Positions 16,001 through 62,901 of a stretch of 64,000 nucleotides of DNA are shown one piece after another. Numbering within the stretch: position 1 is the first letter of the stretch; each line of letters begins with the position of its first letter. The notes under the pieces were generated by a model that was not told where the DNA came from, did no database searches, and was given only the letters and a program-made list of their open reading frames with translations. Origin of the DNA: Xanthostigma xanthostigma (Eukaryota; Arthropoda; Insecta; Raphidioptera; Raphidiidae); the NCBI GenBank assembly GCA_963575645.1, contig OY754467.1, positions 24,449,001 to 24,513,000 on the forward strand, in the 5' to 3' direction. The translations under genes were made by a program, and so were the position numbers.

Positions 16001-16470
16001 TTATTCAAATAAATCTGAGGACAAAATTGGTGTTCACGAAAGCAAAGCCGATACAATATTAGGTTTTGTTTTAGCTACTGCGCAAGATGGTGACGGTTCT
16101 GTTACCGTTCTCAGACAGCTTGGAACATACCTAATATATATAGGCTAATTTAATTTATGTAAAAGATAATAAATTCGTTTGATTTTATTCATTTGGAAAA
16201 GCATTGTTATTATTATTTATAATGCATTTCCACGCATTTCATTCTCTGTCATGAAACAATTATTGCTGTGTAAATAAATTATTACAGGTCATTAATAATT
16301 ACTAACAATAGAACAAGGGAGATGACAAATCAATAATAAAATTGCATTTGCTTATTTTCATTAAAGTGCAATTTGCTTTACAACTTCATTATACTGGGTG
16401 CACACTGGCAAAAATGAAAACTGAAATGATACAATTCTAAAAAATATTGTCTGAAGACATAAGTAATTTA
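13020..16470. other. Long gene-less AT-rich stretch
   Basis: No convincing coding region. About 14,220-14,330 faintly resembles, in antisense, the repeat tail near 20,330-20,430 (GGTAGCGCCTATATACACTT). About 15,190-15,320 has another retroelement-tail flavour (CTCTTCTGGAATCAAAATTC, GCCAAATTTCAACTTTC). The rest shows nothing recognisable. Confidence 0.45.
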
Positions 16471-16477
16471 AGAATTA

Positions 16478-16515
16478 CAAGGCGCGAAATTTTACATAAT
16501 ATACCCCGGCGTTGG
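16478..16515 (+). repeat. Leader block, copy 2
   Basis: AAGAATTACAAGGCGCGAAA followed by TTTTACATAATATACCCCGG matches the leader at 61,278-61,309 and, inverted, 2818-2872. Here it is followed by the 2.2 kb palindrome. Confidence 0.65.
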
Positions 16516-16540
16516 CCAGGCATAATAGGGTTCGAACAAC

Positions 16541-18772
16541 AAAAAAATTAGTTACAGCAATCCGACACCGGGATATTGTAGAATAAGATGTTCTAAAAGA
16601 GGGAAAAATCGAACAGTCTGCTGCTATCCGGGGTGGAATAGGGTGGCTTTTTAGGGGTTGAAATCAGTTTTTCAAAATTTCTGGCTAAACGATGCATTCT
16701 ATCGAAAAAAGTTAAATATAAAAGTTGTAGATAATGAAAAGATCTACAACTTTTGTATTTACCATTTTTACCCTAACCTCAACATTTTTCGAAAAAAATG
16801 CAAAAAACCGGTTTTTTGGTTTTTAATTTTTTTTTTCGAAAACAAAAAATCAATTGAGCCCAAACTTTGCCAAAAGATACCTTTTGGTATTATAAAGATG
16901 TAGTAATTTTTTTGAAAGGAAATATTTTAAGGTTTTTTTTAAAAATGTATTTTTTCGAAAAAAAAATGAAATTTTTAACGAAAATCCTACCTAAAACTAC
17001 GCAACCTACAGAGTTTAAAATTGTCACACTTACTCGTTGTTACGTCTACTTTCAATTAGTAGTGAAAAAAAGGTACACGCAATGGAAAAAATGGCGGGAA
17101 AATTGAAAAAACCGAAAAAATGACTTTTTTTGTGGTTTTTGGCATATACATCGTCGAACAATCGTTATTAATTAATAAAATCATTATAATTTTCATGTTT
17201 AATCTTTGATTATTGTACAGCGCTACTTTTCAAATGATAAAAAATTTACATACAATCATAATAATCATACAATAGGTAATGTAGTAGATCTATACTTAAT
17301 GATATATACGGATTTTGCAGATAAGAGTGGTTAAATCTGGAAAAGTGGTGGAACAGCTCCGATTTCAAAAATTCTTTTTTTCCTTGATTCCTTAGACCCT
17401 CAGGAACATTCATCACCACTAACCTCCACCTCACTCTGAAAATTGGAAAAAGTAGGGTGTTTTTAACCCTCTCAAAAGCACCCGCAAGTGAAATAGTGAA
17501 AAAAAATTTTGAAAAATAAAAATTTTGCCTTAAAAATCGCCTCTCAGGGATTTTTGAGGTCACTGATTACGAATCCGAGGTCTGTAATCAAGTGAGGGTA
17601 ATCAGTGACCTCGAAAACTCCCGAGAGACGTTTTTAAGACAAAATATTGTTTTTTACTGTATTTTTCATTACAGTGACGACTGGGGGTGATTTTGAGGGG
17701 TTGAAACTACCCTTAGTTGATTACAGACCTCGGATTCGTAATCAGCGACCTCGAAAATCTCTGAGAGCCGATTCTTAAGGCAAAATTTTTATTTTCCAGA
17801 ATTTTTTTTCACTGTTTCACTTGCGGGTGCTTTTGAGAGCGTTAAAACCACCCTACTTTTTCCAATTTTCAGAGTGAGGCGGAGGTTAGTGGTGATGAAT
17901 GTTCCTGAGGTTCTAAGGAATCAAGGAAAAAAGAATTTTTGAAATAGAGCTGCTCCACTACTTTTCCAGATTTAACCACTCTTATCTGCAAAATCCGTAT
18001 ATATCATTGTAGATCTACTACATTACCTATTGTATGATTATTATGATTGTATATAATTTTTTATCGTTTGAAAAGTAGCGCTGTATAATAATCAAAGATT
18101 AAACATGAAAATTATAATGATTTTATTAATTAATAACGATTGTTCGACGATGTATATGCCAAAAACCACAAAAAAAGTCATTTTTTCGGTTTTTTCAATT
18201 TTCCCGCCATTTTTTCCATTGCGTGTACCTTTTTTTCACTACTAATTGAAAGTAGACGTAACAACGAGTAAGTGTGACAATTTTAAACTCTGTAGGTTGC
18301 GTAGTTTTAGGTAGGATTTTCGTTAAAAATTTCATTTTTTTTTTCGAAAAAATGGACTTTTAAAAAAAACCTTAAAATATTTCCTTTCAAAAAAATTACT
18401 ACATCTTTATAATACCAAAAGGTATCTTTTGGCAAAGTTTGGGCTCAATTGATTTTTTGTTTTCGAAAAAAAAATTAAAATCCAAAAAACCGGTTTTTTT
18501 CATTTTTTTCGAAAAATGTTGAGGTTAGGGTAAAAATTGTTAATACAAAAGTTGTAGATCTTTTTATTATCTACAACTTTTACATTTAACTTTTTTCGAT
18601 AGAATGCATCGTTTAGCCAGAAATCTTGAAAAACTGATTTCAACCCCTAAAAACCTACCCCATTCCACCCCGGATAACAGCAGACTGTTCGATTTTTTTT
18701 CCCTCTTTTAGAACATCTTATTCTACAATATCCCGGTGTCAAATTGCTGTAACGAATTTTTATTTTTTTTTT
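16541..18772. mobile_element. 2.2 kb near-perfect inverted repeat (foldback)
   Basis: Two arms of about 1.05 kb (16,541-17,591 and 17,717-18,772) are reverse complements with only scattered differences, around a loop of about 125 bp (17,592-17,716). The ends read TTAGTTACAGCAATCCGACA on the left and, on the inverse right arm, TTCGTTACAGCAATTTGACA. The inner ends share CGAATCCGAGGTCTGTAATC. No long frame resembles a transposase. Part of the innermost sequence recurs directly (GTGACCTCGAAAA near 17,606 and GCGACCTCGAAAA near 17,746). A transcript across it would fold into a very long hairpin. A foldback DNA transposon or an inverted duplication are the main explanations; no target duplication is clear. 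Confidence 0.9.
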
Positions 18773-18828
18773 CAATTTTCCTGCTATTTTTACTGGTGTC
18801 TATTATGTTTGAAAATTGAAGTATATTT

Positions 18829-18950
18829 TTAACGACACTTTGAGCTTAATAATAAATATAATTTAATTAACTTAATCTATGAAAAAAATAACAGTTGAAA
18901 ATATTGAAATACAGAAAGAAAAAAATCATTTTAATAATTTATTAATAATT
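18829..18950 (+). repeat. Dispersed block paired with the leader
   Basis: TTTAACGACACTTTGAGCTT, then a stretch with ATGAAAAAAATAACAGTTGA, and ATTTTAATAATTT match 61,308-61,425. At 61 kb this block directly follows the leader, whereas here the 2.2 kb palindrome lies between the two. Confidence 0.7.
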
Positions 18951-19125: not shown

Positions 19126-19965
19126 ATGACATTAATTTGTAAAAATTATTTGATTATTTTATTCAAGATGGTTGTGAAGGAAAATGTATTCCGTCATCTT
19201 AGGGCATCCGCCATTCAAAAAGACCAAATAGGAACAGCGTATCTACCATATATAAAAAACACAACGGATCGCATTGGTAAACTCCTGGAGAAATATAACA
19301 TAAAAACTATATACAAGCCTAAGATCTGCTAAAGATACCAGAGACCCACTGGCAACACCTGGTATTTATCGCGTTCCTTGCACATGTGGGTCAGTATATA
19401 TTGGGACAAAAAAACGAAGTGTAAAGACACGCATAACAGAACACAAGAGAAGTTGTAGACTGGGACACATCAAAAAATCTGCAATAGCCAAGCATACGTT
19501 GACTCTAGACAACCACAAGATCCTTTTTGAAGAAACCAAAGTTATAGACAGAACATCGAGATACTAGCCCCGCATATACAGAGAGGCCATAGAAATACAC
19601 AAACGCACAAATAATTTCAACCGCAAAAACGAAAATTTGACTTTAAGTAAAAACTGGACACTAGCACTGTGCAATACCAACCCACTGAATAGAACGACCA
19701 ATCACAGAAGAGCATACTACGACCGAGTAGAGAACACGAGCACGTTGGCTATAAAAGACGGAAGTATCAATTTGTTGACACACTTACCTGTGAGCAGCCT
19801 AGAAAGAAACTTCGCCCGTTACCACATCGCCTTTGATAATGTCTACCGCAGTTGTTGACAAAACGTCAGGTAGTAATACCAATGGACCACGGCATACAAG
19901 CCCGGAAACCAAGAAGATTTAAATGCTATCTTTTTGTTTTACTATTGTAATAAATAAAATTATGA
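19126..19965 (+). mobile_element. Penelope-like retroelement, 3' coding end
   Basis: The region encodes the linker and GIY-YIG endonuclease end of a Penelope-like element. Visible signatures are AYLPYIKNTTDRIGKLLEKY, then KDTRDPLATPGIYRVPCTCG and SVYIG (the GIY...YIG pair with a CxC between them), then REAIEIHKRTNNFNR, LSKNW and a tail ending near 19,858. An AATAAA-type signal follows near 19,952. In this family the protein joins a reverse transcriptase to this endonuclease. The reverse transcriptase portion is absent, so the copy is 5'-truncated and not intact (a few breaks). Confidence 0.85.
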
Positions 19966-58885: not shown

Positions 58886-58990
58886 TGAGCGACTAGAATG
58901 CCTTCGGTAAGTTTGAAGCAGATATCATCAACCGATTGAGATGAAAATTTGTATACACGTTTAGTTTGAATGACAATGCATGGTTAGCTG

Positions 58991-59881
58991 TGTGACGTCA
59001 CTCTAAATCCAATACGGCGGACTTCTAAAGATGGCGGACTAATTTTATTATGCTTTCCTACAATATGGGTATCAAATGAAAGGGCTTGCTGAGAATAACT
59101 CGTAAAATAAAGTGACGTCACTCTAAATCCAATATAGCGGACTTCTAAAGATGGCGGACTAATTTTATTATGCTTTCCTACAATATGGGTATCAAATGAA
59201 AGGGCTTGCTGAGAATAACTCGAAAAATAAAGTGACGTCACTCTACATCCAATATGGCGGACTTCTAAAGATGGCGGACTAATTTTATTATGCTTTCCTA
59301 CAATATGGGTATCAAATGAAAGGGCTTGCTGAGAATAACTCGAAAAATAAAGTGACGTCACTCTAAAACCAATATGGCGGACTTCTAAAGATGGCGGACT
59401 AATTTTATTATGCTTTCCTACAATATGGGTATCAAATGAAAGGGCTTGCTGAGAATAACTCGTAAAATAAAGTGACGTCACTCTAAATCCAATATAGCGG
59501 ACTTCTAAAGATGGCGGACTAATTTTATTATGCTTTCCTATAATATGGGTTTCAAATGAAAGGATTTGCTGAGAATAACTCGAAAAATAAAGTGACGTCA
59601 GTCTAAATCCAATATGGCGGACTTCTAAAGATGGCGGACTAATTTTATTATGCTTTCCTACAATATGGGTATCAAATGAAAGGGCTTGCTGAGAATAACT
59701 CGAAAAATAAAGTGACGTCACTCTACATCCAATATGGCGGACTTCTAAAGATGGCGGACAAATTTTATTATGCTTTCCTACGATATGGGTATCAAATGAA
59801 AGGGCTTGCTGAGAATAACTCTAAAAATAAAGTGACGTCACTCTAAATCCAATATGGCGGACTTCTAAAGATGGCGGACTA
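58991..59881. repeat. 120-bp satellite, ~7.4 units
   Basis: Seven full units and one partial unit have an exact 120-bp period and very high identity. Each unit starts with GTGACGTCAC or a close variant, then carries two GGCGGAC words about 20 bp apart (ATATGGCGGAC, AAGATGGCGGAC), then TTTTATTATGCTTTCCTAC and GGGTATCAAATGAAAGGGCT. Because 120 is a multiple of three, a 245-codon minus-strand frame stays open across six units (58,984-59,721); this is a by-product of the period and not evidence of a protein. Confidence 0.9.
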
Positions 59882-59884
59882 AGT

Positions 59885-60065
59885 TTCTGACGTGATAACG
59901 TCTTATAAATTGATTTAACACCAGCTGCACGCACGAAAAAGTGTAACGTTCCGTAACGTTCCGCCTGACCCTGTGCGTGCAAGCGAGAGCGCAGTAATGT
60001 ATTATTAAATATGATATTCGAGCGGAATACGTTATCACGTAAAACTATCGTCCGTAAACCGACTT
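59885..60065 (+). repeat. Right flank of the 120-bp array
   Basis: A second, longer copy of the left flank. TGACGTGATAACGTCTTATA near 59,889 pairs with its partial inverse TACGTTATCACGT near 60,029. Contains CCTGACCCTGTGCGTGCAAG. Probably the rest of the element that carried the array. Confidence 0.65.
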
Positions 60066-61270: not shown

Positions 61271-61277
61271 GCCCAAG

Positions 61278-61425
61278 TAATTCAAGAATTACAAGGCGCG
61301 AAATATATTTAACGACACTTGGAGCTTAATATAATAATATAACTTATTTTACTTAATCTAAGAAAAAAATAACAGTTGAAAATAATGAAACACAGAAAGG
61401 AAAATATAATTTTAATAATTTCATG
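61278..61425 (+). repeat. Leader plus second block, contiguous
   Basis: AAGAATTACAAGGCGCGAAA is followed at once by TATTTAACGACACTTGGAGC and the block shared with 18,829-18,950. In the 16.5-18.9 kb copy the same two blocks are separated by about 2.3 kb, most of it the palindrome. Confidence 0.7.
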
Positions 61426-61559
61426 GTTCTCTATGTAATATGTTATTGTGTCATGCAAAAATTAAACAAAGAACTACCTAACTAACATCTTCAGAACAAA
61501 AGAACAAAAGATTTTTTTTCAAAATATTTCTGAAATTATGAGTGTAGAAAGAAAAATTC

Positions 61560-62083
61560 ATAACTTTCTTGTAAAAGCAGATAGAAATATAAACTGTTAT
61601 GAAAAGTACCCAATCATTATATAAAAACAACTTTATAGCATGTATGCGCCGACTTTAGCTCAAAGAATATTTTACAAAACTTTCTTTAAAATAGAATAAT
61701 AAAACATTATAAAAAGTACACCATTATTATACAGAAAACAACTATGGCATGTATCTCTTTTGTACATGCGCCGATTTTTCCCAAAAATTATACAAAACTC
61801 TTGTAAAAATAGATCAAATAATAAACTGTTATGAAAAGTATACCATTGTTATATACAAACAACTTTATAACGTATACCTATTCTGCGCATGCGCCGACTT
61901 TCCCTCAAAAAAACATTTTACAAAACTTTCTTATAAAGTAGAATAATGAAACCATTATTATATAAAAAACAACTATGGCATGTATCTCTTTTGCGCATGC
62001 GCCGATTTTTCCCAAAAATTATACAAAACTCTTGTAAAAATAGATCGGATAATAAACTGTTATGAAAAGTATACCATTGTTAT
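61560..62083 (+). repeat. Tandem array with GCGCATGCGC motif, array 2
   Basis: Four to five units of about 108-121 bp. The cores are ATGCGCCG near 61,644, ACATGCGCCG at 61,764, TGCGCATGCGCC at 61,884 and again at 61,992. Each unit also has CTGTTATGAAAAGTATACCA, an ACAACTTTATA word and TTTTACAAAACTTTC. It is the reverse orientation of array 1. The last unit runs into the LINE ORF1 at about 62,083. Confidence 0.8.
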
Positions 62084-62901
62084 TAAATTCGAGTGGCAAG
62101 GAGTGGAAATGCCCTAAATGTATAACAGGCGAGAAAACATCAAATAGAAGAGATTCTAGTAATGACACTTCTGAGTCAACTCTGCAAGATATACTCAAAG
62201 AACTGAAGATAATGAATAACAGGCAGAAAAATATGGCAGATTCGATTGAACTCTGTCACAAAAATATTGCTGAAAATAATAAGTTGATATCAGAACAAGA
62301 AAAAAACATAAATTTATGCGAGGAAAAAATAGAAGAATTACAAAGAAACAATGACCAATTAATAATAGAGAATGAAGAGTTAAAACAAAAATTGAACCTT
62401 CAGGAGCAATATACTAGAGCCAATACATTAGAAATAAATGGTATTCCAGAGATTCAACAAGAAAACATAATCATTACCTTAAGCTACATTTGTAAAGCAA
62501 TTAACTTTGAATTTAATCCTCTGATGATAGATGCTATCCATCGTCTTGGAAAGAATCCGAACCGTCCAGATGAACCCAGAGGTATTATAGTAAAATTTGT
62601 TAGACGGATTGACAAAGAAGAATTTCTACGAAAGAGACGCATCAGAAAGAATTTCAATAAAAACGATCTTCCAGTACTCTCTCAATTAGCTGAACAACAA
62701 ACCCCGATATACATAAATGAATCTTTAACCAAAGCAAACCGAATTCTTCTAGCAAAAACTAAAGCATTCAAAAAATCATCGGATTACAAATATGTGTGGA
62801 CCAGAAACGGGAAAATATTTCTGAGACAAACAGACCAATCCAAGGTGATAGTTGTAGACTCGGAAATACAATTGCAAAGCAATGTAAATGAACGTACCTA
62901 G
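62062..62901 (+). CDS. LINE ORF1 protein, N-terminally truncated
   Basis: A 279-residue open frame. WKCPKC (residues 15-20) is the last cysteine pair of a PHD-type zinc finger; the first part of the finger is absent. Residues about 40-118 form a charged coiled coil (for example EEKIEELQRNNDQLIIENEE) ending in EQYTRANTLEINGIPE. An RRM-like section follows (IDAIHRLGK, RGIIVKFVRRIDKEEFLRKR). The C-terminus (YINESLTKANRILLAKTKAF, YVWTRNGKIFLRQ) resembles the baculovirus FP25K-type C-terminal domain found in LINE ORF1 proteins. The family binds element RNA in ribonucleoprotein particles. The first codons (MKSIPLLL) lie in the final array monomer, so this ATG is borrowed and the copy is 5'-truncated. 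The rest is intact, which suggests a young insertion of a CR1/Jockey-group LINE. Confidence 0.85.
   Translation: MKSIPLLLNSSGKEWKCPKCITGEKTSNRRDSSNDTSESTLQDILKELKIMNNRQKNMADSIELCHKNIAENNKLISEQEKNINLCEEKIEELQRNNDQLIIENEELKQKLNLQEQYTRANTLEINGIPEIQQENIIITLSYICKAINFEFNPLMIDAIHRLGKNPNRPDEPRGIIVKFVRRIDKEEFLRKRRIRKNFNKNDLPVLSQLAEQQTPIYINESLTKANRILLAKTKAFKKSSDYKYVWTRNGKIFLRQTDQSKVIVVDSEIQLQSNVNERT

What the first reader, a model, noticed from the sequence alone, without database searches (positions are those of the whole stretch)
16541..18772. 2.2 kb near-perfect palindrome with ~1.05 kb arms
The two arms are far more alike than expected for old sequence, and both ends share a TTACAGCAAT-type terminus. 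It could be a large foldback transposon, a recent inverted duplication, or a source of long hairpin RNA that feeds the siRNA pathway.
Basis: partly seen in the sequence, partly recalled or inferred. Interest (0 to 1): 0.8.

Follow-up and report, generated by a model that had tools for sequence, protein, structure and literature searches.

The report
Foldback transposon with self-matching arms
The palindrome is one copy of a dispersed family of apparently non-autonomous jumping DNA elements built almost wholly of two mirror-image arms, which seem to copy each other while the element's two different tips stay apart.

Summary
The palindrome is real: arms 16543-17592 and 17717-18761, apex 17593-17716, 96.5% identical in ungapped columns (93% over 16535-18769 with gaps). 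It is not a one-off: the window's own genome (623 Mb) yielded 28 loci with the arm, 27 with inverted arms at least in part (17 complete). The palindrome is the inside of a transposon, 16512-18802, whose tips lie 31 and 41 bp outside the arms and differ (A: TAGGCCAG..., B: ...ACTGGTCTA). Of 31 family members and relatives with both tips, 28 carry an exact 3-bp target-site duplication; the window copy's tips are altered and show none. Within a copy the arms match better than random pairings, no column separates A arms from B arms, the apex is inverted in 2 of 7 short-apex copies, and all 27 convergent tip pairs found are A+B. So arms exchange sequence and tips do not. A relative with an intact 1513-aa ORF, 1.05-kb inverted repeats, related tips and TSD CAT is the best candidate source of transposase. 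TSD length and weak FEN1/XPG-like nuclease motifs point to AcademX: inferred, not proven. Best filed as a foldback-type element, a new variant of a known kind. The siRNA idea could not be tested; an assembly artefact is very unlikely.

The parts
16512..18802 (+). whole element, tip A to tip B (2.29 kb); this copy's tips are altered (TTGG for TAGG; GGTGTCTA for GGTCTA)
   Evidence: tip sequences shared with other copies
16512..16542 (+). tip A, outside the palindrome, unlike tip B except for an outer ~8 bp (TAGRCCAG in other copies)
16543..17592 (+). arm A of the palindrome
16724..16750 (+). 27-bp hairpin motif GTTGTAGATAATGAAAAGATCTACAAC inside a ~100-bp block shared with relatives and the autonomous candidate; possible transposase site (inferred)
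17593..17716 (.). apex, a diverged copy of the arm's inner end; reversed relative to the tips compared with 5 of the other 6 short-apex copies
17717..18761 (-). arm B of the palindrome
18551..18577 (-). second copy of the 27-bp hairpin motif
18762..18802 (+). tip B, outside the palindrome
16461..16511 (+). left flank: part of a repeat with other copies in the window (61275-61304; 2812-2864 reversed) that lack the element
18823..18940 (+). right flank: same repeat; in the copy at 61275-61421 it follows the left part directly, with about 43 bases around the site missing there

Best explanation
This is a non-autonomous, foldback-type DNA transposon. Shown: it is dispersed, ends in two different short tips (A and B), makes 3-bp target-site duplications as a family, has no ORF of 120 aa or more, and is filled by a ~1.05 kb inverted repeat around a modular apex. 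Shown statistically: its two arms exchange sequence within a copy while the tips do not. Inferred: a transposase encoded by a relative such as the 6.8-kb element at G000:C4:19932803-19939596 (intact 1513-aa ORF, same tip plan, 3-bp TSD, long near-identical inverted repeats, shared subterminal blocks) recognises tip A and tip B together and moves the element by cut and paste. During gap repair or hairpin formation one arm copies the other, which keeps the palindrome near-perfect, occasionally flips the apex, and in relatives has pushed the arms into coding sequence. The superfamily is most likely Academ (AcademX-like); this rests on TSD length and weak nuclease motifs.
For: 28 loci with the arm, 27 with inverted arms at least in part (L028 shows one arm plus apex units in the stretch fetched). 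3-bp TSD exact in 28 of 31 with both tips: 19 of 22 palindromic copies and 9 of 9 relatives; shuffled partners 2.8 on average, maximum 9; 1 of 31 at 4 bp (48 stretches = 44 distinct loci examined). Tips: 27 of 27 adjacent convergent tip pairs within 10 kb are A+B, none A+A or B+B. Arm exchange in 17 copies: own-arm identity 97.4% against 96.1% for permuted pairs, longest identical run 316 against 131 bp, each 0 of 20000 permutations; own arm ranks first of 17 by identity in 9 copies and by run in 11; 0 columns where at least 80% of A arms and at least 80% of B arms hold different letters. Apex flipped in 2 of 7 short-apex copies at 95-99% identity. Autonomous candidate L056: 1513-aa open ORF, inverted repeats 98.1% over 1060 bp, TSD CAT, shared blocks at about 69-78%; its left arm carries an inverted copy of the last 25 residues and stop of its own ORF. 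Three 2.8-3.0 kb relatives (L036-L038) share tips, TSDs and ~620 bp of arm at 92-93% and carry inverted transposase-like fragments. Six short derivatives of 321-630 bp have the same tips and TSDs (L040-L043, L050, L053).
Against: The window copy has no exact TSD and altered tips; L024 and L045 also lack one. The neighbouring repeat copies do not keep the exact target site. The closest relative's protein fragment (L036) matches the 1513-aa ORF at only 41%, and no closer long open frame was among the matches (one search scored 31 of 732 candidates), so cross-mobilisation is unproven. Academ membership lacks any domain hit: Pfam gives only DUF6589 below its cut-off of 27 (24.6 bits; 26.6 bits for the middle piece); the FEN1 comparison has hhalign probability 5.7% (score 29.7; best of 20 column shuffles 22.05); no supporting hit in PDB sequences or NCBIfam. 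Two of 17 copies (L030, L031) show no excess similarity between their own arms, and 0 of 10 long-apex copies has a flipped apex.
Confidence: 0.82

Rival explanations
1. Foldback transposon of a superfamily other than Academ (an undescribed superfamily with 3-bp TSDs, or a lineage carrying a DUF6589-like domain).
For: No Academ-specific profile was available; Pfam gives only DUF6589 below its cut-off; the FEN1-like signal is weak.
Against: AcademX makes 3 or 4 bp TSDs and encodes a nuclease (PMC10045372, passages seen), which fits; motif order and eight invariant C-terminal cysteines fit what I recall of Academ proteins.
Confidence: 0.25
2. An inverted duplication that arose at this site by replication or repair and is not mobile.
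For: The window copy lacks an exact TSD.
Against: 27 loci with inverted arms, shared tips, 3-bp TSDs in 19 of 22 palindromic copies with both tips, and flanking repeat copies without the insert.
Confidence: 0.02
3. Assembly artefact (one arm duplicated).
For: Long palindromes are hard to assemble (general knowledge).
Against: Arms differ by about 3.5%; sister loci have the same plan with different flanks, TSDs and apex lengths.
Confidence: 0.01
4. Kept by the host as a source of long hairpin RNA feeding siRNAs.
For: A transcript through it could form a ~1 kb duplex with a perfectly paired run of 257 bp.
Against: No RNA data; no Rfam match; copies behave as dispersed transposons, four of them (L044-L047) split by other sequence. 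Small RNAs could still arise from it as transposon defence.
Confidence: 0.05

Closest known systems
Galileo of Drosophila (P superfamily; PMC3573991: listing, abstract start and passages seen)
   Same: Long inverted repeats (about 300 bp to 1.2 kb), first copies almost only arms, first classed as Foldback-like, transposase found later.
   Different: P-superfamily transposase; THAP domain by title and abstract of PMC3688188 (listing). Here TSD is 3 bp and the candidate transposase, 1513 aa, has no P or THAP hit in Pfam. Galileo's TSD length is recalled to be longer.
Tm1 Mutator/Foldback family of root-knot nematodes (PMC3169594: listing, abstract start and passages seen)
   Same: Two different short terminal motifs (A1, A2) that its authors count apart from the inverted repeats; MITE-like and transposase-coding relatives.
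   Different: 9-bp TSDs and a 496-aa putative transposase; classed with Mutator.
Tetris of Drosophila virilis (PMC4079207: listing, abstract start and passages seen)
   Same: Non-autonomous foldback with modular tandem repeats and a short relative (DAIBAM) sharing the ends.
   Different: 8-10 bp TSDs, repeats of about 220 bp within the arms; here 141-bp units sit at the apex.
AcademX DNA transposons (PMC10045372: passages seen; the primary paper PMC7165386 is not held)
   Same: 3-bp TSD; nuclease in the transposase (weak support here).
   Different: No foldback Academ was found in the held library: 0 papers hold both 'Academ' and 'foldback' as whole words.

Membership tests
Foldback-type element | Long inverted-repeat arms make up most of the element, with little or no middle | tested here: met
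   arms 1050 and 1045 bp of 2291 bp; 17 copies measured
Foldback-type element | Modular repeats in arms or middle, variable in number | tested here: met
   apex lengths 124, 265, 297, 321, 460-464, 590 in 17 copies; 141-bp units
Foldback-type element | Non-coding; moved in trans | tested here: inconclusive
   no ORF of 120 aa or more in 16512-18802; mobilisation in trans not testable here
Foldback-type element | Inverted repeats reach the very ends | tested here: not met
   arms stop 31 and 41 bp short of the tips; only ~8 bp shared at the tips. Tm1 also has unlike terminal motifs, so I keep the filing as foldback-type, not as a strict member
AcademX | TSD of 3 or 4 bp | tested here: met
   28 of 31 exact at 3 bp, and L056 CAT/CAT
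AcademX | Nuclease (XPG/FEN1-like, by recall) in the transposase | tested here: inconclusive
   no such Pfam hit; hhalign score above all 20 shuffles but probability 5.7%
AcademX | Transposase groups with Academ references | not testable with these tools
   no Academ reference sequences held
PIF/Harbinger | 3-bp TSD of type TWA and a DDE_Tnp_4-type transposase (features recalled) | tested here: not met
   9 of 28 TSDs are TAA or TTA, the rest include GTG, TGG, AAC, AAG; no such Pfam hit
Zator | 3-bp TSD and ISAzo13-like transposase (PMC10045372) | tested here: not met
   TSD fits, but no such Pfam hit in the 1513-aa ORF
Mutator foldbacks (Tm1, Tetris) | 8-10 bp TSD | tested here: not met
   28 of 31 match at 3 bp, 1 at 4 bp, 0 at 5 or 6 bp; lengths above 6 were not counted

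The most novel reading that the evidence does not exclude
The palindrome is produced and renewed by the transposition chemistry itself. Each move leaves an intermediate (hairpin or resected end) in which one end is copied into the other up to, but not through, the paired but unlike tips. A FEN1/XPG-like nuclease domain fused to the transposase sets where copying stops. Any member could then grow arms into its own coding sequence, as the inverted transposase C-terminus in L056 and the inverted N-terminal fragments in L036-L038 suggest, and so turn itself into a non-autonomous foldback.
Probability: 0.15. Interest if true: 0.7.

Novelty: new variant of a known kind. Interest (0 to 1): 0.5.

Why it matters
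How transposons acquire long foldback arms is, to my knowledge, an open question. This genome holds, among elements with the same or related tips, short derivatives (321-630 bp), palindromes with 124-590 bp apices, relatives whose arms have grown over transposase sequence, and an intact candidate autonomous element. The unlike tips act as internal markers, so arm exchange can be told from tip exchange. Most foldbacks seem to belong to Mutator, with exceptions such as Galileo (PMC4079207, passage); an Academ-type foldback would extend that list.

Tried and rejected
Considered and rejected: in-situ inverted duplication and assembly artefact. The palindrome edge as element end was my first reading, with an AATT target duplication there; both were dropped when the copies aligned 31-41 bp further out. 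A host RNA reading: no Rfam match at gathering scores. Relatives outside this genome: none of the 1513-aa ORF in viral contigs or plasmids, no exact match of the arm-end pattern in viral contigs; the element was not sought in phages, metagenomes or genome contigs, and no eukaryotic collection is held. Nuclease identity by Pfam, NCBIfam and PDB sequence search failed. The first arm-comparison script failed and was rerun with default blast gap costs; a fuzzy-match script timed out and was replaced. Structure prediction was not used: its stated rule admits only window proteins or loci from the search for related loci, the DNA search or the look-up of encoding contigs, and L056 came from the fetch from genomes.

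Rows left out: the arm-exchange test used 17 of 28 loci; the other 11 (L011, L015, L018, L019, L027, L028, L029, L032, L033, L034, L035) were left out by me because an arm is truncated, interrupted or absent in the stretch, or a tip is missing. The TSD count examined 48 stretches, which are 44 distinct loci because L011, L018, L027 and L035 were fetched again, longer, as L044, L046, L045 and L047; 31 had both tips within the mismatch limits and 17 stretches were dropped. In the tip pairing, 54 of 86 tip sites fall in the 27 pairs; 32 sites have no adjacent convergent partner within 10 kb. The FEN1 profile used 47 archaeal sequences from 48 of the 53 loci fetched (one under 300 aa was dropped; L108-L112 were not given).

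Full report
Observation. The window holds a palindrome at 16535-18769 (93.0% over 2253 columns with gaps). Its arms are 16543-17592 and 17717-18761 (96.5% of ungapped columns, longest identical run 257 bp), with a 124-bp apex.

It is a family. One arm used as a query gave 95 matches from the 40 candidates scored of 473, falling in 28 loci, long matches about 90-95% identical. In 27 of the 28 both orientations of the arm are present at least in part; L028 shows one arm and apex units only in the stretch fetched. The 28 loci lie near contig middles (mean distance from centre 0.105 of contig length against 0.25 if uniform, 0 of 20000 simulations), with the caveat that only best-scoring copies were used and neighbours may not be independent.

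The element is larger than the palindrome. Aligning the copies shows conserved sequence running 31 bp beyond one arm (tip A, TAGGCCAGGCATAATAGGG...) and about 41 bp beyond the other (tip B...ACTGGTCTA), the two tips sharing only an outer TAGRCCAG. Of 48 stretches examined (44 distinct loci), 31 had both tips; 28 of the 31 are flanked by an exact 3-bp duplication (19 of 22 palindromic copies, 9 of 9 relatives), against 2.8 on average with shuffled partners, and only 1 matches at 4 bp. The triplets vary (for example TTA, AAC, GTG, TGG, CTA). The window copy is one of the three without a match (with L024 and L045); both its tips are altered. Its flanks belong to a repeat with another copy at 61275-61421 that lacks the insert but also lacks about 43 bases around the site, and a third partial copy at 2812-2864 that matches the left flank only, so neither keeps the exact empty site.

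Apex. The apex of the 17 complete copies is 124, 265, 297, 321, 460-464 or 590 bp, built largely from diverged 141-bp copies of the arm's inner end. Among the seven copies with a 124- or 265-bp apex, two (the window copy and L016) carry it reversed relative to tips A and B; 0 of 10 longer-apex copies does.

Arms exchange, tips do not. In 17 copies the two arms of one copy agree at 97.4% on average, against 96.1% for random pairings, and share identical runs of 316 bp against 131 bp; neither value was reached in 20000 permutations. The own arm ranks first among 17 by identity in 9 copies and by run in 11. In no column do at least 80% of A arms and at least 80% of B arms hold different letters, and between-copy identity is the same for A-A (96.0%), B-B (96.4%) and A-B (96.0%) pairs. 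Two copies, L030 and L031, show no excess. In the genome-wide tip search (48 A sites and 38 B sites with up to 2 mismatches), all 27 adjacent convergent pairs within 10 kb are A with B; 32 sites are unpaired. The simplest reading is gene conversion, sometimes with crossover, between arms of one copy, with both tips needed for movement. The mechanism is inferred.

Relatives. Three 2.8-3.0 kb elements (L036-L038) have the same tips, TSDs and about 620 bp of arm at 92-93%, while their inner arms hold inverted copies of a transposase-like N-terminal fragment. That fragment (218 aa, from L036) matches an intact ORF at 41%. The ORF lies in L056, an element of 6.8 kb at G000:C4:19932803-19939596, with tips TAGTGCAGGCAAATTA, TSD CAT, and 1.05-kb inverted repeats at 98.1% that become near-identical only inside unlike subterminal stretches, the same plan as the palindrome family. 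Its left arm carries an inverted copy of the last 25 residues and stop of its own ORF, so arms have grown into coding sequence here too. Six short derivatives of 321-630 bp keep the tips and TSDs. A ~100-bp block with a hairpin motif GTTGTAGAT..ATCTACAAC is found, at least in part, in all ten relatives tested (only 40 bp of it in L040), twice per arm in L056; the motif gives 386 strand-wise hits genome-wide with up to 1 mismatch (some sites read on both strands), its reversed control 0. It is a candidate transposase site, by inference.

Superfamily. Pfam gives the 1513-aa ORF only DUF6589 below cut-off. Its C-terminal part, aligned with three paralogues (38-42% identity), has invariant blocks V-DGG-LLH, FDGY, DAD, G-D-DL-V, GCDTTS and eight invariant cysteines near the end. 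Their order resembles FEN1/XPG nucleases (reading by eye). Profile comparison with 47 archaeal FEN1 sequences aligned the last three blocks in register with score 29.7, above 20 column shuffles (maximum 22.05), but probability was 5.7%. AcademX transposons make 3-4 bp TSDs and encode a nuclease (PMC10045372, passages). I therefore file the autonomous relative as AcademX-like, unproven. The genome has a large related set: 732 first-look candidates of which 31 were scored, with several further long open frames.

Novelty. Foldback elements are known (Galileo, Tetris, Tm1; passages), so this is a new variant of a known kind. The searched library has no paper with both 'Academ' and 'foldback', which is weak evidence since many papers, including the main AcademX paper, are not held.

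Function. No host role is shown. A hairpin transcript and small RNAs remain possible and untested.

Noticed in passing
window 58992-59886: Tandem array of a 120-bp unit (about 7 copies, 95-97% alike) with an open frame of 278 aa on the minus strand, 58984-59820.
   Followed up: no
window 62056-62901: ORF of 281 aa with a Baculo_FP_2nd match (PF25298, E 6e-17), perhaps a retrotransposon ORF1 (recall), preceded by ~230-bp tandem repeats at 61552-62087 that recur inverted at 2207-2792.
   Followed up: partly
window 19160-19400: Fragment reading like a GIY-YIG/Penelope-type element next to the palindrome (by eye).
   Followed up: no
L046:1671-5687: Open 1339-aa frame that reads like a gypsy-type polyprotein (by eye, not searched) inside the A arm of a palindromic copy that still has its 3-bp TSD.
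   Followed up: no
G000, for example C1:34466262 and 34467236: The hairpin motif recurs in convergent pairs about 0.3-2.1 kb apart at seven further places on contig C1 in the listed part of the hits, suggesting other palindromic or TIR families.
   Followed up: no
G000:C5:19371536, C10:29949116, C8:38224683: Further long paralogues of the 1513-aa ORF: two in open frames of 1449 and 1463 aa, one with a single stop; their C-terminal parts were fetched.
   Followed up: partly
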